A DNA stretch of 8,023 nt from Oscillospiraceae bacterium. GTDB taxonomy: Bacteria; Bacillota_A; Clostridia; Oscillospirales; Oscillospiraceae. Each line of letters begins with the position of its first letter. Position 1 is the first letter of the stretch. A model generated the notes under the pieces. The model had not been told where the DNA came from. It saw only the letters and a program-made list of their open reading frames with translations, and did not search any database. Position numbers and translations under genes: made by a program. Location: NCBI GenBank assembly GCA_015068175.1, contig SVLA01000092.1:1-8023 (forward strand), given 5' to 3'. Shown one piece after another: positions 1 through 8,023 of the stretch.

Positions 1-2064
1 CTGCCCGATGTGTTTGGCTACTCTGCCAATCTGCCTCAGATCTGCAAGCGCAGCGGTATCGACTATTTCTATACCACCAAGATCGGCTGGAATGAATACA
101 ATAAATTCCCCTATGACACATTCCGGTGGCGGGGTCTGGACGGCAGTACCGTTCTGACCCACTTTGGCTGCGCCATCCAATATGCGGATATCGAGACCGA
201 CTGGATGACCACCTACAATCCCACTTTGGAGCCGGCCTTCGTGCTGGGCGCCTGGAGGCGCTACCAGCAGAAGGATCTGAACCGGGATCTGCTGTTTGAT
301 TTCGGTTACGGTGACGGCGGCGGTGGTCCCACCCAGGAGATGATCGACTACGGTCGCCGTTTCCAGGCAGGAATCCCCGGCTGTCCCACGGTGAAGTTTG
401 CCAAGACCCTGGACTACTTCAAGCATCTGGAAGAGGAAGTGGCGGACAATCCCCACCTCCCGGAATGGACCGGAGAAATGTATCTGGAGTTCCACCGCGG
501 TACTTATACTTCCCAGGGTAAGACCAAAAAGAACAACCGCCGCAGTGAGCAACTGTACCATGATGTGGAAAATCTGTGGTCTTTTGCCAAGCTGATGGGC
601 GCAAAGGAAGAATATCCCGCCGAAAAGCTGGAAAAGAATTGGAAGCTGATCCTGCTGAATCAGTTCCATGATGTTCTGCCCGGTTCCTCCATCGCAAAGG
701 TCTACGAAGATGCCCAGGAACACTACGATCAGATCCTGGGCCAGGGCACACAGATGCGGGATGATGCCGCCGCTGTGCTGGCTTCCAAAGTTCATACCGA
801 GGGCGACAGCCTGGTGGTGTTCAATACCATGTCCTTTGCCCGTGATTGTGTGGTGATTTGGGACGGCAAAATCGAAGGCCTGCTGGATCCGGACGGTACT
901 CCCATCCCTTGCCAGAAGACCTACGACGGAAAGACCGTTTTTGTGGCACCGGCTGTGCCTTCCAAGGGTTGGAAGGCGTTCCGCATCGGCGGGGCGGCCC
1001 CGGCAGAGAAGAAGGTCAGCGTGTCCGCAGAAGGCATCGAGACCGATGGCCTGCGGGTGACCTTTGACGACCGGATGCATATTACCTCCCTGTATTCCAA
1101 GTTCGCCGGCCGCGAAACCCTGCCCCAGGGCGCCGTTTCCGGCCGCCTGATCGCCTATGACGATGTGGCACGGAATGACGATAACTGGAATGTCCAGGCA
1201 TACTATCGTGAAAAGTACCGGGTCATCGACCAGGTGACCGATGTGCAGGTCCTGGAAGCCGGCCCGGTGCGGGGCGTGATCTGCGTGGATCGAAAGTTCC
1301 GCAACTCCACCCTGCGTACTTATATGATGGCTTATGCCGGTTCGGATCTGCTTCATTATGAATATGAGATCGACTGGCAGGAACACAATCTGTTCGTCAA
1401 GGCGGAGCATCCCGTGGATGTCAACGCCCAGAATGCTTCCTACGAGATCCAGTTCGGCTATGTCCAGCGGCCGGTGCATAAGAATACCCTTTGGGACTTT
1501 GCGCGGTTTGAGGTCTGCGGCCATAAGTATGCGGATCTGTCCGATGGCGGCTTCGGTATGGCCATCCTCAATGATTGCAAGTATGGCTTCGATGCCACCC
1601 GCAACAGCCTGAATATTACCCTGCTCAAGTGCAGTACCTATCCCGACAAGCAGGCGGATATCGGCCACCATAGCTTTGCCTATGCGCTGTACCCCCACGG
1701 CGGAGATCTGCTGGCAGGCCGTGTCCGTGACCGGGCCTACGATTTCAACTTCCACGCACCTGCGGTGGCGGTGCCTGCGCAGCAGGGCGAGCTGCCCGGC
1801 GTGTACTCCATGCTGAGCATCAGCGCTCCCAACGTGGTCATCGAGACCGTGAAGAAGGCGGAGGATTCCGACGATATCGTGGTGCGCATGTATGAAGCTG
1901 AAAACAAGCGGACGGAGTGCCTGCTGTACACGGCAGTGGCTCCGGCCGGCTGCACCGAGACCAACCTGATGGAAGAGCCGGAGAATGTATTGCCCGTGGA
2001 GGGCAACACCGTGGCTCTGACCTTCCGCCCCTTCGAGATCAAGACGGTGATCATTCACAAATAA
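1..2064 (+). CDS. GH38 alpha-mannosidase, 5'-truncated by the window edge
   Basis: The reading frame is open from base 1 and encodes the C-terminal 687 residues of a glycoside hydrolase family 38 alpha-mannosidase, a zinc-dependent retaining exo-enzyme that releases mannose from alpha-mannosides. The window opens on LPDVFGYSANLPQI, the GH38 nucleophile motif; the Asp is codon 3 (bases 7-9). Further family signatures are YGDGGGGPT with the likely acid/base Asp at codon 105, EFHRGTYTS with His at codon 165, and NQFHDVLPGSS with the probable zinc-ligand His at codon 223. The rest is the long beta-rich C-terminal region, ending in the typical PFEIKTV stretch. Family members with this motif style are about 1000 residues, so roughly 350 N-terminal residues should lie upstream, and the GTG at base 10 is not a start. 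Whether it has a signal peptide cannot be seen. The family is secure; linkage specificity and natural substrate are not. It is followed by a hairpin and then another glycosidase gene, which suggests a mannan or N-glycan degradation locus. Confidence 0.95.
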   Translation: MPDVFGYSANLPQICKRSGIDYFYTTKIGWNEYNKFPYDTFRWRGLDGSTVLTHFGCAIQYADIETDWMTTYNPTLEPAFVLGAWRRYQQKDLNRDLLFDFGYGDGGGGPTQEMIDYGRRFQAGIPGCPTVKFAKTLDYFKHLEEEVADNPHLPEWTGEMYLEFHRGTYTSQGKTKKNNRRSEQLYHDVENLWSFAKLMGAKEEYPAEKLEKNWKLILLNQFHDVLPGSSIAKVYEDAQEHYDQILGQGTQMRDDAAAVLASKVHTEGDSLVVFNTMSFARDCVVIWDGKIEGLLDPDGTPIPCQKTYDGKTVFVAPAVPSKGWKAFRIGGAAPAEKKVSVSAEGIETDGLRVTFDDRMHITSLYSKFAGRETLPQGAVSGRLIAYDDVARNDDNWNVQAYYREKYRVIDQVTDVQVLEAGPVRGVICVDRKFRNSTLRTYMMAYAGSDLLHYEYEIDWQEHNLFVKAEHPVDVNAQNASYEIQFGYVQRPVHKNTLWDFARFEVCGHKYADLSDGGFGMAILNDCKYGFDATRNSLNITLLKCSTYPDKQADIGHHSFAYALYPHGGDLLAGRVRDRAYDFNFHAPAVAVPAQQGELPGVYSMLSISAPNVVIETVKKAEDSDDIVVRMYEAENKRTECLLYTAVAPAGCTETNLMEEPENVLPVEGNTVALTFRPFEIKTVIIHK

Positions 2065-2170: not shown

Positions 2171-3415
2171 ATGGAAGGTAAGTACTGTCAAATGGCGAAA
2201 AAAGCCCTGGAAGATGTGTATGCCCGGTTCTGGACGGATGAGGATGGCGGCCATATCCTGCCCACCCATTGCGGTCAGGTGGTGGAAAAACCGCTGATGA
2301 TTTGGGAGGTGACCATGCTACTGATCGCCATGGAAACCTATTATGATGCCACCGGCGACCAAGAGACCGCAGGGCGGATCGCCGGCACATGGCGCTATTT
2401 GAAATCCGTGTTTACCCGGGAGCAGATGGTGGCCAATTTCGGCAGCGAACCCAATCTGGCGGTGGACGACGTGGGCTGGGACATTATGTGCTATCTGATG
2501 GCCTACCGCTTCACCGGAGACGATGAGGCCCTGGAAATGGTCAAGACCACCCTGCTGGGTGCCTATGAGCATTACAAAGACGGCGACGATCTGCGGGCTG
2601 AGGGCCTTTGGTACAATGACTGGGCCCAGTATAATGACCAGTGGAAGTCTTCTTACATCGTCAGCCTGCTGATCAGTGCGCTGGAATATAGCCGTATTAC
2701 CAAAGAAACGGACAAGTTCTGCCCCGAACTGGAGGAGAAAACTCTGCAATTGTGCGATTGGGTAGAGCATACATTCCGCCGGGACCGGGTCTACACCGTG
2801 GAAAACGGCAGGAAAGACGGAAGCCCCTATACCGTGGATGTGATCGACCATCTGTACTGGATCGACTTCAACAAGGATCGGGAAAACAGAGACGAGCGCA
2901 ATGGCCCCAGCGGCGGACTGCGACCCCATGATATCCGGGAACTGGGCAGCGTCAGCGCCATTTTTGCCAATATGGGCATGGCGGCTGTGAATGTCATGCG
3001 CTATGAGATGTTCGGTGACGAGGAATGCCTGCGGAAGGCTATCCAGACGGCGGATGCCCTGGAAAAGCGGTACGATAACAACGGCGCTTACCTCAACGAC
3101 CGTGACGGACATACCAATGCCACCATGCTGCGCTGCTATATCCATACCCTGCTGGGTACCGAACGGACCACGGCGGCGCAGAGAGATCTGTTGTTCCGCA
3201 CGGCGGAGAACATCTTTGCTTCCGCCCGGAACTGCGATGGCTGGTATCTGCCCTGGTGGGGGAAAGTGGTGGACCGGATCCCGGAAATGACCCCCTCTTT
3301 TGCACAGTCGGTGTACGGCATCATGTTCAATGCCACCTCCGCCACCATGATCTGCGGCGCGGCGTTGCTGGAGAGTATGGGCTTCAGGCCCGGCTGGGAA
3401 AAAGAAAACGTCTAA
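2171..3415 (+). CDS. GH76-like (alpha/alpha)6-barrel glycosidase, putative alpha-1,6-mannanase
   Basis: This encodes a 414-residue protein with no signal peptide and no membrane segment, so it is probably cytoplasmic. The pattern of helical hairpins ending in aromatic or glycine-rich loops is that of a six-hairpin glycosidase. The segment around residues 98-103 (VDDVGW) matches the adjacent-Asp catalytic motif of GH76, with D99 and D100 as candidate catalytic residues. It is followed by a helix with AYRFTGDDEALEM, as in GH76 proteins. Residues 144-151 (GLWYNDW) and 158-161 (WKSS) resemble the GGGIWW and K-N segments of that family. GH76 enzymes cut internal alpha-1,6 linkages in mannan backbones, which fits the neighbouring GH38 mannosidase. 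Other (alpha/alpha)6 families, such as the N-acylglucosamine 2-epimerase fold or an uncharacterised relative, cannot be excluded by eye. The fold is likely; the family is moderately supported; the activity is inferred. Confidence 0.65.
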   Translation: MEGKYCQMAKKALEDVYARFWTDEDGGHILPTHCGQVVEKPLMIWEVTMLLIAMETYYDATGDQETAGRIAGTWRYLKSVFTREQMVANFGSEPNLAVDDVGWDIMCYLMAYRFTGDDEALEMVKTTLLGAYEHYKDGDDLRAEGLWYNDWAQYNDQWKSSYIVSLLISALEYSRITKETDKFCPELEEKTLQLCDWVEHTFRRDRVYTVENGRKDGSPYTVDVIDHLYWIDFNKDRENRDERNGPSGGLRPHDIRELGSVSAIFANMGMAAVNVMRYEMFGDEECLRKAIQTADALEKRYDNNGAYLNDRDGHTNATMLRCYIHTLLGTERTTAAQRDLLFRTAENIFASARNCDGWYLPWWGKVVDRIPEMTPSFAQSVYGIMFNATSATMICGAALLESMGFRPGWEKENV

Positions 3416-3441
3416 AAAACGGACTCTTGGGCGAAATGGGT

Positions 3442-3459
3442 CAAATGTTATAACATTTG
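3442..3459. promoter_or_regulatory. Perfect 18-bp palindrome, candidate operator
   Basis: CAAATGTTATAACATTTG is an exact palindrome in the 215-base gap after the GH76-like gene, about 86 bases upstream of the -35 box of the next gene. The symmetry and length fit the site of a dimeric transcription factor. It is followed by CTGTTATTTTT, so a weak AT-rich terminator hairpin for the upstream gene is an alternative. The binding protein is unknown. Confidence 0.5.
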
Positions 3460-3513
3460 CTGTTATTTTTCGTTATATTCAACAGAACAGCGATAGCATT
3501 ATTGACGATCCAG

Positions 3514-3536
3514 ACAAATTACGAAAAATAATTTGT
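3514..3536. promoter_or_regulatory. Inverted repeat just upstream of the promoter, operator or UP-like element
   Basis: ACAAATTA (3514-3521) and TAATTTGT (3529-3536) form a perfect 8-bp inverted repeat around the 7-base spacer CGAAAAA. It ends 8 bases before the -35 hexamer. An activator or repressor site, or an A/T-rich UP element contacted by RNA polymerase alpha, would all fit this position. Confidence 0.4.
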
Positions 3537-3544
3537 TTAACCGA

Positions 3545-3573
3545 TTGACAAAGGCGCGAGAAGAAGATATTAT
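3545..3573 (+). promoter_or_regulatory. Strong vegetative (sigma-A type) promoter
   Basis: TTGACA at 3545-3550 is a perfect -35 hexamer. It is separated by exactly 17 bases from TATTAT at 3568-3573, a 5-of-6 match to the -10 consensus TATAAT. Transcription would start near 3580, giving a leader of about 50 bases before the ATG at 3631. It should drive the two exported-protein genes that end at the terminator at 5288-5315. Confidence 0.75.
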
Positions 3574-3616
3574 TACCATAGGCGTGCCCCTCCCGGCATC
3601 GCCACATACATGATTT

Positions 3617-3621
3617 GGAGG
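3617..3621 (+). promoter_or_regulatory. Ribosome binding site that fixes the start at 3631
   Basis: GGAGG sits 9 bases before the ATG at 3631. An in-frame ATG at 3610 lies upstream of this site and would place MIWRNRK before the signal peptide, so 3631 is the better start. Confidence 0.85.
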
Positions 3622-3630
3622 AATCGAAAA

Positions 3631-4473
3631 ATGAAGAGACTGTTTAGCCTGATGCTGGCGTTGATGATGGTCCTGAGCCTGGCTGCTCTGGTTTCCGCTG
3701 ACGAGAATGAACTGGCTGCTGACGGTTGGAAAGTTGCCAATGACAATTTCCTTGGCTGGACCAAGGAAGGCGACGAGATTGTAGGCGATTTCAACATCGG
3801 CTGGGAAAATGCAGAACCCATGAAACTGTGGAAGAGCATGATCACCGACTTTAACAATTTCCGCCTGGAAATGACCCTGACCGCCAACAATATGACCAGC
3901 CCCGCCATCTCTGTGATGGGTGTCCGCATTGAAGCCGACGGAAACGGCGGCGACGGCCACCAGGTCTACCTGAAGACCAACAACACCGAAGGCTTTGAAG
4001 GCAGAAACCAGACTTATGACTGGATCAAGGCGGCTAACTCCAAGGTCAATGTGACCGTGGCCCGTAAGGACGGCGGCGACCTGCACATCCTGATCGCCGG
4101 CGAGAGCAACGAGAACGTCATCGGTGAGTTCAAGCTGATCACCGTGCCTGTGACCGCTGAGACCGATACCGTGGAGATCATGGCTTACAGAGGATGCGCC
4201 CGTTTCGGTGCCATTACCCTGACTGAGGGCGCTGATGTGGAACTGCCCACCGAGCCCGCTCCCGTGGTGCCCCCCACCGAGGCCCCTACGGATCCTGTAG
4301 AATTGCCCACCGAGCCCGAGGCTACTGAACCCGAAGCTACTGAGCCCAAGGCTACCGACCCTGCTGACGACGCCCCCGCCGGCGACACCAGCATCGGCCT
4401 GATCATCGCCATTGTTGCTGTGGTGGTTGTGGCTGTTGTGGTCATCGTGGTCATCCGCAAGAAGAAGGCGTAA
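3631..4473 (+). CDS. Exported membrane-anchored protein with repeated surface domain (copy 1), function unknown
   Basis: This is a 280-residue protein of a family I do not recognise. Residues 1-23 form a signal peptide with probable cleavage at VSA|DE. Residues 31-199 form a beta-rich domain shared with the next two genes. Its landmarks are an opening DGWK...LGW, the core EADGNGGDGHQVY (101-113), DW at 130-131, a V-x-V-x-x-R-x-x-GG-x-L strand pair, and a late YRG. Residues 200-250 are a Pro/Thr/Glu linker holding LPTEP twice and three 5-residue units of the type [EK]ATEP or KATDP. Residues 255-275 form a Val/Ile-rich transmembrane helix ended by RKKKA. No LPXTG-like motif is present: APAGD sits where the next protein has NPKTGD. 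It should therefore stay in the cytoplasmic membrane with its domain outside. It has its own strong promoter and lies 60 bases from copy 2. A carbohydrate-binding role is only a guess from the fold style and context. Confidence 0.93.
   Translation: MKRLFSLMLALMMVLSLAALVSADENELAADGWKVANDNFLGWTKEGDEIVGDFNIGWENAEPMKLWKSMITDFNNFRLEMTLTANNMTSPAISVMGVRIEADGNGGDGHQVYLKTNNTEGFEGRNQTYDWIKAANSKVNVTVARKDGGDLHILIAGESNENVIGEFKLITVPVTAETDTVEIMAYRGCARFGAITLTEGADVELPTEPAPVVPPTEAPTDPVELPTEPEATEPEATEPKATDPADDAPAGDTSIGLIIAIVAVVVVAVVVIVVIRKKKA
4318..4362 (+). repeat. Three 15-bp in-frame repeats in the Pro/Thr/Glu linker
   Basis: Three consecutive 15-base units encode EATEP, EATEP and KATDP in the linker before the transmembrane helix. 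Synonymous differences (GAA/GAG, ACT/ACC) show that the units have drifted. Such linkers usually act as spacers or stalks on cell-surface proteins. Confidence 0.8.
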
Positions 4474-4486
4474 GCTGATTATGTAA

Positions 4487-4508
4487 TTAGCGGCAGAAAT
4501 GCCGATAA
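4487..4508 (+). other. Intercistronic stem-loop with GAAA loop
   Basis: CGGCA (4491-4495) and TGCCG (4500-4504) close a GAAA tetraloop. TTA and TAA extend the stem beyond one G/A mismatch. No U-tract follows, so it is not a good terminator. It lies between copies 1 and 2, just before the ribosome binding site of copy 2, where it could affect message processing or the relative yield of the two proteins. Confidence 0.45.
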
Positions 4509-4533
4509 TAAATGAATTTGGAGGGACTATTTT

Positions 4534-5271
4534 ATGAAGAAACTGATTTCTGTTCTCCTGGCACTGACCCTGGTTCTGGGTCTGGCAACTGTTGCTTCTG
4601 CAGCTTCCATGGCTGACAGCGGCTGGTGGGATGACGACGGCCAGTACGACGGCTGGACTCTGAACGACGACGGCTCCATGACCATGATCAATGGTAATGG
4701 CTCCGGCAAGAACGACAACCGCATCGGCCACGGCATCGAGGATCCCGATAACTTCGAGATCACCGTCGTTGTGGACTCCGAGACCAACAGCCGCCCCGTC
4801 ATCAAGCTGTTCGGCCTGATCATCGAGCTGAACGCCGAGAACGGCAATGGCAACCAGTTCTTTGTTAAGAACATGGACGCCAACGGCAACTGGAACAACT
4901 TCGACTGGCTGAATGCTACCGAGTGCGTCGTCACCGTGAAGCTGGTTCGCGCCAATGGCGGCAACCTGCAGGTCACCGTTACCGGTAAGGACAATGCTAC
5001 CCCCATCACCATGGATATGGCGATCGGTGATGCTTCCGCTACCAACCTGGAGCTGGCTATGTTCGACTGCGGCAACCATCCCCAGCGCGGCATCGCTACC
5101 TACACCGTGACCTTCCCCGCTGCTGAGCCTCCCGCAACCGAGCCTCCCGCAACTGAAGCTCCTGCTGAGACCAAGCCCGCCAACCCCAAGACCGGCGACA
5201 TCTTCGGCGTCGTCGTTGCTCTGCTGGCTGTTTCCGCTATGGGCATCGCTGTTGTTTCCAAGAAGCACTAA
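4534..5271 (+). CDS. Exported, probably sortase-anchored protein with repeated surface domain (copy 2), function unknown
   Basis: This is a 245-residue protein. A strong GGAGGG site (4520-4525) lies 8 bases before the ATG. Residues 1-23 are a signal peptide with likely cleavage at ASA|AS. Residues 29-194 are a second copy of the surface domain, with YDGWTLND near the start, ELNAENGNGNQFF at 98-110, DW at 124-125, V-x-L-V-R-A-N-GG-N-L-x-V, and an MFDCG segment where copy 1 has MAYRG. Residues 195-216 form a Pro/Thr/Glu linker with EPPAT repeated twice. The C-terminus is NPKTGD (217-222), a transmembrane helix and KKH. This has the architecture of a sortase substrate, with NPKTG replacing LPXTG, so it is probably linked to peptidoglycan. 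The domain is rich in Asn, Asp and Gly, and codon choice is strongly biased to AAC, GAC, GGC and ATC, which suggests high expression. It is followed by a strong terminator. The domain's ligand is unknown. Confidence 0.95.
   Translation: MKKLISVLLALTLVLGLATVASAASMADSGWWDDDGQYDGWTLNDDGSMTMINGNGSGKNDNRIGHGIEDPDNFEITVVVDSETNSRPVIKLFGLIIELNAENGNGNQFFVKNMDANGNWNNFDWLNATECVVTVKLVRANGGNLQVTVTGKDNATPITMDMAIGDASATNLELAMFDCGNHPQRGIATYTVTFPAAEPPATEPPATEAPAETKPANPKTGDIFGVVVALLAVSAMGIAVVSKKH
5125..5154 (+). repeat. Two 15-bp tandem repeats encoding EPPAT
   Basis: GAGCCTCCCGCAACC and GAGCCTCCCGCAACT follow each other, differ only at the last base, and encode EPPAT twice in the wall-spanning linker before NPKTGD. 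The near-identity suggests a recent slippage or unequal-crossover duplication. Confidence 0.85.
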
Positions 5272-5287
5272 TTCCATAACGCAATTT

Positions 5288-5315
5288 GGGCACCGCATAG
5301 TGCGGTGCCCTTTTT
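5288..5315 (+). terminator. Strong rho-independent terminator
   Basis: GGGCACCGCA (5288-5297) and TGCGGTGCCC (5301-5310) form a perfect 10-bp GC-rich stem with a 3-base loop, followed directly by TTTTT (5311-5315). It starts 16 bases after the stop of copy 2 and should end the transcript carrying copies 1 and 2, separating them from copy 3. Confidence 0.93.
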
Positions 5316-5380
5316 GCCTAATCACTCTAATTTCGCAAATATCTGTGACTGCAAAATGGGCCGAGATAGACCGTGACACG

Positions 5381-5387
5381 AAAGGAA
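5381..5387 (+). promoter_or_regulatory. Ribosome binding site for copy 3
   Basis: AAAGGAA lies 7 bases before the ATG at 5395. It is weaker than the GGAGG sites of copies 1 and 2. The 79 bases between the terminator and this ATG must hold any dedicated promoter, and I see no convincing one. Confidence 0.7.
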
Positions 5388-5394
5388 CGATACC

Positions 5395-8023
5395 ATGAAA
5401 CGTATATTGAGCATGATGATCGCGGCGGCGTTGCTGCTGAGCATTTTGCCTGCGGCGATCCTGGCGACGGGCCAATCCCCTGCAGATCAGGGTTGGCAGA
5501 CGGACAGCAACCGTTTCGACGGATGGACGACCGAGAACGGTGTCATTACTTGTGATTACAACACCTCCGCCACCACGCGTATGTGGCGAAAGGTGGATAG
5601 TCCCAACAATTTCAAGATCTCCTTTGATATTACCTGCGATAACCGTACCAGCCCCTATATCCAGTTGGGCGGCACCATCCTGGAAGTGGATGCCAACAAC
5701 GGCGACGGCAATCAGGTCTATCCCAAGGTCAACGGCGTGGGCAGCGATTGGCTGAAAGCTGACGGTTGTAAGGTCCACATGGAGATCAACCGCGTCAACG
5801 GCGGTTATTTGACGGTGACCATCACCGGCGCCGGAAATGATGCCCCCAGAGTACTGACCGCAGCCTGCGGCGATGTGGACAACATTGAGATCGGTATGTA
5901 CCGCGGCGGCTTCTTCTCTTTGGCCAACTATAAAGAAGAGAAGGGCGACGATTCTCAGGTGGGCGAAGACCCCGATGCCGGCAGCGGCGAACTGGGCGTT
6001 GAACCCGACAGCAGAGGGAGCGAGGTGTGGACCTTGGGTGAAAACTGGGCCGTCGACAAAGAAGATTCCGTGCTGATCCTCACCAAGGCCAACGGTGGCG
6101 AGGCCCTTTGGAACGAAACCCTGGATATGAACCAGAGTTTCACTTTCTCCATGGATTGGGTGGTCAACACCACCATCAACAGCAACAATACCTGGGCGGA
6201 AAAGATGGCGCTGTGCCTGAAGGATTCCGCCACCGGCGATTACCTGTTCATCCGCCTGCAGCGCTACCGCAGCGGCGGTGGTATGTATCAGGTCCACATC
6301 GGCGCCCAATGGTGGACAGCGGCCACCTCCAGTTGGAGTCCCAATGTCCTGGATGTTTGGGCTTCCAAGATGAGCGGCGGTGTTTTGAAGGATATGAAGG
6401 TGCAACTGGTGCGGGATAATTCCCAGGATGCACTGCAGATCAAACTGCTGGATAATGAGGACGGTACCAGCCTGGGCAGCGCCATCCTGAAGCCTGGCAA
6501 TTTCTCCGATGCCACCATCCGCAATAAGTTCAGTGAGATGGTCCTCCACGGTACCGAAGTGGCGGTGGCCATCAGTTGCGACGGCAACAATGCGCCCTAC
6601 TACCTGACCAACCCGGTACTGGGCGAGGAGGAAAAAGTCGTCAGCCAAAATCTGTTTGCCTGCGATGACGTGTGGAAGCCGGAGCTGGACGACAAGGGCA
6701 ATCTGCACTTTACTACGAAAAATGCCGGCTTTGGCTGGATGGAATATAATGCCGGCCTGGATGCCGCCGCCGGTTTGGACTTTACTTATGCCGTGACGGT
6801 GACGGATTACGGCAAGGATGGCGCCTCCAGCGCGATCCGCCTTCGTTTCTGCGAGAATCCTGAGCAGTATTTCTTTGCCCGTCTGCGTTTTAAGGATGGC
6901 CAGTTTGCCATTCAGGGGCAGATGTGGGACGGAAACTGGACGGATCTGATGGGCGGCAATCAGTGGATCAGCGGTGAGACCCCAAATGATACCTGGCTGG
7001 TCCATGTGACCGCTGGGAACAATGTGCTGAAGTTTGAGATCCAGGACAGCACCGGCAAGGTGCTGGGTACTTACTCCACCGACCGGCTGCCGGCGGCATT
7101 CTTTGCCTGCGAAAATCTGGAATTGATGTTCTGCACCGAGGGCAACGGCCTGCACAGCCTGTCCGGATTCAAGGGCCTGCCGGAGATCTACTCCGCCGAT
7201 CGCCGCAGTGAGCCCTTCGGCAAGGTGGTCTTTGCCGGCGATGTGGTCCGTCAGTGGAATGAGACTTTAATCAGCGATCTGATCGCTTACCAAAACAAGA
7301 CGCCCGAAGCGGCCCTGGTGGCATGGAGCAAGGATGCCATCCTGGAGGAGCAGGGCCACCTGATCGTGCTGTCCGACGGTGTCGGCGCCATGTTGGGCGG
7401 TACTTCCGCCGCCGACTATGCCGCAAAGCTGAAGGAGCTGATCTCTGCTTTGAAGCAGGAAAGCGGCGTGGGCACGGTGATCCTGGTAACGGGCCTGCCC
7501 TATATCCAGGGAACGGATAGCCAGCTGTGCGCAGAATACAATGCGGCGATCCGGGCCGTGGCCATGGATCAGAACGTGCTGTACGCCAATCTTTACAGAG
7601 CCCAAAGCCAGACGGTCTGGACCTTGGACGGGGAACTGAACCCCACGGAGTCCGGCAAGCGGCTGGCCGCCGGCGAAGTTCTGCAGGAACTGCTGCGTAC
7701 TTGCAGCTGCCTGGCGGTGAACGCCACCACGGAATTGAAGATCGCGGCTACGGCCCCTGCGGAAAAGACCCAGGCGGCGCTGGATGCCTTCCGGACCGCC
7801 GCTGATGCCAAAGCCCTGGAAAAGGCGCTGACGGATGCCCACTTGGGTGCGGACCTGGATCTGTACCTGGGCTTCAGCACGGCGGTGCAGGAAAAGACCG
7901 TGCAGGCGTTGTTGGCCCTGGATCGCAGCGGTATCAACAGTTTTGAGGCCGCCGATGCCATGATCAACGCCGTTGCCATGAAGGTCGGCCTGGAAAATCG
8001 CCGTGAGATCCGCGGCCAACAAC
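5395..8023 (+). CDS. Large exported multidomain protein: repeated surface domain (copy 3), two beta-sandwich-like modules, degenerate SGNH-like region; 3' end outside window
   Basis: The frame stays open from the ATG to the last base, giving 876 codons with the C-terminus missing. Residues 1-24 are a signal peptide (probable cleavage ILA|TG). Residues 32-179 are the third copy of the surface domain, with FDGWTTE, EVDANNGDGNQVY (97-109), DWLKA (from 118), NRVNGGYL and MYRGG. An acidic Gly/Asp/Glu linker follows (about 181-209). Modules at about 210-413 and 414-595 look like concanavalin/LamG-type beta-sandwiches and share a Y-[LF]-F-x-R-L strand followed by Gly and Trp-rich segments. Residues about 600-770 follow the layout of an SGNH/GDSL hydrolase: FAGDVV, LIVLSDG, VGTVILVTGLP, YNAAIRAVA, LYANLY and DGELNPTESG. 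The nucleophile Ser of GDS is Val617, and the last block has no His, so it is probably not an esterase. Residues about 780-876 are helical and unrecognised. It likely acts at or outside the cell surface; the anchor, if any, lies beyond the window. Gene existence is secure, function is not. Confidence 0.93.
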   Translation, partial: MKRILSMMIAAALLLSILPAAILATGQSPADQGWQTDSNRFDGWTTENGVITCDYNTSATTRMWRKVDSPNNFKISFDITCDNRTSPYIQLGGTILEVDANNGDGNQVYPKVNGVGSDWLKADGCKVHMEINRVNGGYLTVTITGAGNDAPRVLTAACGDVDNIEIGMYRGGFFSLANYKEEKGDDSQVGEDPDAGSGELGVEPDSRGSEVWTLGENWAVDKEDSVLILTKANGGEALWNETLDMNQSFTFSMDWVVNTTINSNNTWAEKMALCLKDSATGDYLFIRLQRYRSGGGMYQVHIGAQWWTAATSSWSPNVLDVWASKMSGGVLKDMKVQLVRDNSQDALQIKLLDNEDGTSLGSAILKPGNFSDATIRNKFSEMVLHGTEVAVAISCDGNNAPYYLTNPVLGEEEKVVSQNLFACDDVWKPELDDKGNLHFTTKNAGFGWMEYNAGLDAAAGLDFTYAVTVTDYGKDGASSAIRLRFCENPEQYFFARLRFKDGQFAIQGQMWDGNWTDLMGGNQWISGETPNDTWLVHVTAGNNVLKFEIQDSTGKVLGTYSTDRLPAAFFACENLELMFCTEGNGLHSLSGFKGLPEIYSADRRSEPFGKVVFAGDVVRQWNETLISDLIAYQNKTPEAALVAWSKDAILEEQGHLIVLSDGVGAMLGGTSAADYAAKLKELISALKQESGVGTVILVTGLPYIQGTDSQLCAEYNAAIRAVAMDQNVLYANLYRAQSQTVWTLDGELNPTESGKRLAAGEVLQELLRTCSCLAVNATTELKIAATAPAEKTQAALDAFRTAADAKALEKALTDAHLGADLDLYLGFSTAVQEKTVQALLALDRSGINSFEAADAMINAVAMKVGLENRREIRGQQ

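What the first reader, a model, noticed from the sequence alone, without database searches (positions are those of the whole stretch)
3631..5934. Tandem trio of exported proteins built on one unassigned surface domain
Three adjacent genes encode signal peptides followed by diverged copies of one 150-170-residue domain. By eye the copies share a GW-x(n)-GW opening, an N-F strand, a T-S-P-x-I segment (clear in copies 1 and 3), an E-x-[DN]...G-x-G-[NH]-Q core, DW[IL], R-x-x-GG-x-L and a late Y-R-G or related turn. The rest is strongly diverged, which implies an old duplication kept for different roles. I cannot match the domain to a named carbohydrate-binding or adhesin family. With alpha-mannoside hydrolases upstream, a glycan-binding surface system is the leading hypothesis.
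Basis: partly seen in the sequence, partly recalled or inferred. Interest (0 to 1): 0.75.

Follow-up and report, generated by a model that had tools for sequence, protein, structure and literature searches.

The report
Trio of surface sugar-binding-like proteins
Three neighbouring bacterial genes share an undescribed lectin-like domain that most likely holds sugar chains at the cell surface close to sugar-processing enzymes; it looks like a new family of a familiar kind.

Summary
The three domains are homologous: pairwise BLASTP E 1e-12 to 4e-27, profile-profile E 1.2e-18 to 3.7e-36. Each copy type lies on one side of a well-supported branch in a 52-row tree, so the split is old. No Pfam model matches the window's copies above its cut-off. 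The predicted structure of B is a confident concanavalin A-like beta-sandwich.

Two corrections. (1) The third protein is not a third small surface protein: it is at least 876 aa, cut by the window edge, and its relatives run to 1126-1155 aa with two further sandwich-like regions, a dead SGNH hydrolase and an intact SGNH hydrolase. (2) Gene 2 upstream is not recognisably GH76; it matches no Pfam family. It is homologous, however, to the C-terminal region of P0063, which carries this same domain at its N-terminus.

Best reading: A and B are anchored sugar-binding proteins (B probably through an NPXTG-like signal and, by codon bias, abundant), and C is a carbohydrate esterase targeted by the same domain. 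Binding, activity and ligand are inferred; alpha-mannose is suggested only by the GH38 neighbour.

The parts
1..2064 (+). GH38 alpha-mannosidase, 5' end cut by the window
   Evidence: Pfam Glyco_hydro_38C E 1.5e-50, 38N 1.9e-37, Alpha-mann_mid 2.7e-28, 38C2 4.9e-19
2171..3415 (+). Gene 2: 414-aa protein without evident leader, no Pfam or NCBIfam family; homologous to residues 421-777 of P0063, a protein with the trio's domain at its N-terminus
   Evidence: no family; BLASTP E 2e-13; hhalign E 9.9e-9
3545..3573 (+). Promoter-like site upstream of gene A: TTGACA, 17 nt, TATTAT, 11 of 12 consensus bases
   Evidence: 5 promoter-like sites in 3300-5450 against a shuffle mean of 1.5
3631..4473 (+). 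Gene A: leader, domain copy A (residues about 25-199), Pro/Thr/Glu linker, C-terminal hydrophobic segment ending RKKKA
   Evidence: 25 further A-type clusters, P0024-P0048
4534..5271 (+). Gene B: leader, domain copy B (about 23-195), Pro-rich linker, NPKTG-type anchor signal; codon usage more biased than in the four neighbours
5288..5310 (+). Intrinsic-terminator-like hairpin (10-bp stem, 3-nt loop, TTTTT) between B and C
   Evidence: 3 terminator-like sites in the region against a shuffle mean of 1.7, this one by far the strongest stem
5395..5952 (+). Gene C, N-terminal part: leader and domain copy C
6004..7194 (+). Gene C, two further regions with predicted strands, weakly related to each other (hhalign E 4.9e-5, probability 68%) and not detectably to domain copy C
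   Evidence: low-confidence model
7210..7719 (+). Gene C, degenerate SGNH-hydrolase region: catalytic Ser and His positions replaced
   Evidence: Lipase_GDSL_2 E 8.2e-6, 26.9 bits, below the curated cut-off 32.9; related to the intact copy of its homologues, hhalign E 7.4e-12
5395..8023 (+). Gene C as a whole, 3' end cut by the window; homologues of 1126-1155 aa continue into an intact SGNH hydrolase and a C-terminal hydrophobic segment

Best explanation
The shared domain is a carbohydrate-binding-module-like domain with a concanavalin A-like beta-sandwich, in a family for which no Pfam or NCBIfam model was matched. A (held by a membrane segment) and B (probably linked by a sortase through an NPXTG-type signal, and probably abundant) display one copy each on a flexible linker and hold a polysaccharide or a glycoprotein glycan at the cell surface. 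C uses the same domain to bring a large esterase to that glycan; its C-terminal SGNH hydrolase would remove acetyl or similar ester groups. Released pieces would be taken up and cut by the GH38 mannosidase and by gene 2. Shown by computation: homology, gene order, predicted fold, domain combinations in relatives. Inferred: glycan binding, esterase activity, anchoring, high expression, one shared substrate, the place of action of GH38 and gene 2, and that the substrate contains alpha-mannose.
Confidence: 0.6

Rival explanations
1. The domain binds the cell's own envelope (wall glycan, teichoic acid or capsule) and the C-type SGNH enzyme edits its ester groups; the trio maintains or decorates the surface and has nothing to do with feeding.
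For: Leaders and anchor-like tails; separate promoter-like and terminator-like sites around A-B, so no shared transcription with GH38 and gene 2 is evident; codon bias of B fits a constitutive abundant surface protein.
Against: P0063 joins the domain to a region homologous to gene 2, the neighbour of GH38, which points to a metabolic link.
Confidence: 0.2
2. The domain is a protein-binding or adhesin domain: the sandwich recognises surface proteins of a host or of other bacteria, or serves as a spacer.
For: Tethered small proteins with flexible linkers resemble adhesin layout; the fold is used for many tasks.
Against: Fusion to an SGNH hydrolase and to a gene-2-like region is an arrangement usual for sugar-binding modules (general knowledge; CE2 in PMC9487903, passages).
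Confidence: 0.12
3. The domain is itself an enzyme: a lyase or hydrolase with the jelly-roll fold, acting through the conserved Glu/Gln/Tyr/Lys stripe.
For: Foldseek lists PL7 alginate lyases (best E 1.6e-5) and VIA-align lists an endo-glucanase (VvEG16) and a 3-keto-glycoside eliminase; five polar or aromatic positions are kept on one hairpin face.
Against: The aromatic position is Phe in 15 of 17 B-type rows and Tyr in 15 of 17 A-type rows, unlike a catalytic Tyr; no Pfam match of the window's copies to a lyase or hydrolase family in the domain.
Confidence: 0.08

Closest known systems
Concanavalin A-like accessory sandwiches of GH43 enzymes, and CBM66
   Different: 6-12% identity in the GH43 and CBM66 rows; no Pfam match; here mostly alone on small anchored proteins
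CE2 and CE17 carbohydrate esterases (binding module plus SGNH; review PMC9487903, passages seen)
   Same: Sugar-binding module and SGNH hydrolase in one protein; RiCE17 and RiCE2 deacetylate mannans according to that review
   Different: C-type proteins have three N-terminal sandwich-like regions, a dead SGNH copy and another module family; activity unknown
Surface glycan-binding proteins such as Sas20 of Ruminococcus bromii (PMC9112005, abstract, opening lines and section list seen)
   Same: Exported non-catalytic sugar-binding protein of a gut Gram-positive, with a beta-sandwich in one domain
   Different: Ligand known (starch), part of an amylosome; sequence relation not tested here one to one
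CscABCD surface clusters of Lactobacillus and others (PMC1534035, abstract and section list seen)
   Same: Cluster of exported proteins with putative sugar-binding domains, proposed for carbon acquisition
   Different: Those include WxL domains and are reported absent from clostridia; no WxL match in the window's proteins
Xanthan locus of Ruminococcaceae R.UCG13 (through the review PMC10881899, passages seen)
   Same: Gut Gram-positive locus with two GH38 mannosidases and two carbohydrate esterases
   Different: No PL8, GH5, GH88 or GH94 match among the window's five genes; the window is only 8 kb

Membership tests
Concanavalin A-like lectin/glucanase fold | Two-sheet antiparallel beta-sandwich aligned over the domain | tested here: met
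Pfam families of carbohydrate-binding or lectin domains | Sequence match of the window's copies above the curated cut-off | tested here: not met
   A, B and C scanned up to E 1 and copy C alone up to E 10: best for the domain is DUF5077, E 0.0078, 16.8 bits against 24.6. In a scan of 35 relatives, 25 of 35 matched families were shown; weak single hits there include W_rich_C (1 member, E 0.0023) and BT_3044-like_C (2 members, E 0.029)
Carbohydrate-binding module (functional sense) | Demonstrated sugar binding | not testable with these tools
   Needs binding assays
Carbohydrate-binding module (functional sense) | Occurs attached to carbohydrate-active enzymes | tested here: inconclusive
   7 of 8 C-domain hits carry an SGNH hydrolase and P0063 a gene-2-like region; neither enzyme is shown to act on sugars
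SGNH/GDSL hydrolase (C-terminal copy of C-type proteins) | Ser of GDS, Asn of GxND, His of DxxH | tested here: met
   7 of 7 full-length homologues; the window ends before this part, so not readable in C itself
SGNH/GDSL hydrolase (first copy, 7210-7719) | Ser of GDS and His of DxxH | tested here: not met
   0 of 8 rows, window C included, keep the Ser or the His
CE2 | Structure and sequence of the CE2 type | tested here: inconclusive
   Foldseek lists CE2 structures for the C-type model (E 9.2e-5 to 2.4e-4, rmsd above 20), but the model has mean pLDDT 59.8; by sequence the best solved chains are acetyl xylan esterases, E 0.00026
   0 families up to E 10; 0 solved chains up to E 1; a fold comparison was not made
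Sortase-anchored surface protein (B) | NPXTG-type motif, hydrophobic stretch, basic tail | tested here: inconclusive
   10 of 17 B-type proteins match Rumino_NPXTG at E 0.1 or better, best 1.2e-7; window B itself 18.4 bits against 23.5
CscABCD clusters | WxL domain | tested here: not met
   No such Pfam match up to E 1 in A, B or the part of C in the window

The most novel reading that the evidence does not exclude
A previously undescribed sugar-capture system, probably of gut Gram-positive bacteria: a triplicated lectin family in which two abundant anchored copies and one esterase-borne copy, diverged before the present lineages split, recognise different features of one ester-decorated, mannose-containing polymer, doing for these cells what Sus-type surface glycan-binding proteins do for Bacteroides.
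Probability: 0.2. Interest if true: 0.6.

Novelty: new member of a known kind. Interest (0 to 1): 0.42.

Why it matters
How Gram-positive gut bacteria hold glycans at their surface is, to my knowledge, less well described than in Bacteroides. A small domain kept in three separate lineages, tied to an esterase and lying beside a mannosidase, gives three directly testable proteins and a probable new binding-module family. Gene 2 and the P0063 C-terminal region may also be an undescribed enzyme family.

Tried and rejected
GH76 identity of gene 2: no Pfam, NCBIfam or PDB sequence support. Genome context: a scan of genome contigs for A-type proteins confirmed no relative among 174 pattern matches, and for the GH38 gene none among 37. 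As the patterns are a few short peptide words, this does not show absence. Viral contigs: none of 26. Plasmids, searched with C, and phages, searched with B: no match. Foldseek also listed receptor-binding and related domains of bacterial toxins for both models, and ranked some of them first. For B these rows have TM 0.34-0.41 of the query length and 6-12% identity, and VIA-align puts sugar-enzyme sandwiches first. I take them as the common jelly-roll fold only; no toxin reading is made. Common descent of domain C with the two following sandwich-like regions: not supported (hhalign E 0.15 and 0.16). Rfam RNAs in the window: none at gathering score. A minus-strand ORF at 3499-7155 (1218 aa) overlaps A, B and most of C and is taken, untested, as a by-product of codon composition.

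Rows left out before counts. P0023 was not counted as B-type and P0050-P0055 not as A-type, because they match in leader, linker or tail only. Alignment A2 (17 rows, B-type) leaves out P0001, P0003, P0004 (two domains), P0002, P0015, P0019 and P0023. Alignment A3 (18 rows, A-type) leaves out P0025-P0027, P0029, P0030, P0033, P0034, P0040, P0049 and P0050-P0055; A5 also leaves out P0039. The choice was made to keep the alignments small and varied. The tree adds the six halves of P0001, P0003 and P0004, the C rows, P0063 and both halves of P0049. Contig-length matching used 26 A-type clusters (P0049 among them), 22 B-type and 8 C-type. The other 21 A and 17 B lengths have no partner in the other set, which says little because only one contig length per cluster is printed.
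Full report
What is there. The window holds five + strand genes: a GH38 alpha-mannosidase cut at its start, gene 2 (2171-3415), A (3631-4473), B (4534-5271) and C (5395 to beyond the window end). A, B and C each start with a Sec-type leader, judged by eye, followed by one copy of the domain. A and B then have a Pro/Thr-rich linker and a C-terminal hydrophobic stretch with a basic tail.

Is the relation real? Yes. BLASTP of the three domains gives E 1e-12, 2e-26 and 4e-27, and alignment scores 17.6-35.5 s.d. above 2000 shuffles. Comparison of the family profiles gives E 1.2e-18 (A-B), 3.7e-36 (A-C) and 9e-33 (B-C).

Age of the duplication. Protein searches gave 23 hits for B, 32 for A and 8 for the domain of C; one B hit and six A hits match outside the domain only. 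In a tree of 52 domain rows the A rows (18), B rows (23) and C rows (8) each form one side of a well-supported branch (97/95, 100/99 and 99/96). Three remote rows (P0063 and the two halves of P0049) have long branches and uncertain places. So the three copies split before these organisms did. Within B-type proteins the domain has been doubled again in P0001, P0003 and P0004.

Linkage. The protein search prints the length of the longest contig for each cluster. Among 26 A-type, 22 B-type and 8 C-type clusters, five lengths are shared by an A and a B cluster, two by a B and a C cluster and one (20,993) by all three. The length 5,550 is shared by the double B P0001 (416 aa) and the C-type P0056 (1129 aa), whose genes would fill about 4.6 kb of it. 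This suggests that the gene group recurs, but the contigs themselves could not be read.

The third protein. Window C is cut at 876 aa. Seven homologues of 1126-1155 aa, 57-89% identical to it, end in an intact SGNH hydrolase. Lipase_GDSL_2 has E 1.6e-28 in P0056, and P0059 and P0061 score alike (3 of the 7 scanned; the precomputed domains of all 7 agree). GDS, GIND and DGLHP are in 7 of 7. The SGNH-like region inside the window (7210-7719) has lost the catalytic Ser and His in 8 of 8 rows and is related to the intact one (hhalign E 7.4e-12). Between the first domain and this region lie two parts with predicted strands that resemble each other weakly (E 4.9e-5, probability 68%) and not detectably the first domain. 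The model of the whole protein is poor (mean pLDDT 59.8) and is used only as a hint.

A telling fusion. P0063 (883 aa) has the domain at its N-terminus (hhalign with copy C E 7.6e-33). Its residues 421-777 are homologous to window gene 2 (BLASTP E 2e-13; hhalign E 9.9e-9). Neither matches a Pfam family up to E 10 or a solved chain by sequence up to E 1. P0063 is a single case.

Possible site. On the hairpin 95-100/108-114, odd positions are mostly hydrophobic and even positions carry E98 (34 of 35), D or N at 100 (35 of 35), Q108 (35 of 35), F or Y at 110 (34 of 35) and K112 (34 of 35), around a Gly/Asn/Asp loop; the even positions 96 and 114 are not conserved. Alternation puts the five on one, probably exposed, face. 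I take it as the candidate ligand or calcium site; no coordinates were available to check this.

Expression and anchoring. A sigma-70-like site with 11 of 12 bases lies upstream of A (3545-3573), and a terminator-like hairpin follows B (5288-5310), so A-B look like one unit and C another. Gene B has an effective codon number of 27.8 against 38.5 +/- 2.6 expected, 0 of 1000 simulations as low; A is 36.1 with 68 of 1000 as low; C is 38.7 with 986 of 1000 as low, that is, less biased than expected. B-type tails match the NPXTG anchor model in 10 of 17 proteins. A-type tails match it weakly in 7 of 18 (best E 0.0086) and the EF0750_LPXTG model in 8 of 18 (best E 0.00062).

Mechanism proposed. A and B hold a glycan at the surface; C brings an esterase to it; GH38 and gene 2 finish the work. 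Gene 2 has no evident leader; the start of GH38 is outside the window, so where it acts is open. Computation shows the homology, the predicted fold and the domain combinations; everything about ligands and activity is inference. An alpha-mannose ligand rests only on the GH38 neighbour.

What is known. No paper on this domain came up in six searches of the held library; the domain has no name to search for, so this is weak. The nearest known kinds are binding modules with this fold, CE2/CE17 esterases (PMC9487903, passages), Sas20 (PMC9112005, abstract), Csc clusters (PMC1534035, abstract) and the R.UCG13 xanthan locus with GH38 and esterases (PMC10881899, passages).

Noticed in passing
window 2171-3415: Gene 2 and the C-terminal region of P0063 may form an undescribed enzyme family: homologous to each other, no Pfam match up to E 10.
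   Followed up: partly
window 4534-5271: Gene B has much stronger codon bias than its four neighbours, a hint of very high expression.
   Followed up: yes
window 7210-7719: A catalytically dead SGNH-hydrolase copy precedes the intact one in C-type proteins; it may be a further binding or spacing part.
   Followed up: partly
window 5288-5310: Terminator-like hairpin between B and C, so the trio is probably two transcription units.
   Followed up: partly
window 1-2064: The only NCBIfam match of the cut GH38 protein is mannosylglycerate hydrolase, far below its cut-off (94 against 1138 bits), so its substrate is open.
   Followed up: no
window 3499-7155, minus strand: A 1218-aa open frame runs antisense to A, B and most of C; probably a composition effect.
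   Followed up: no
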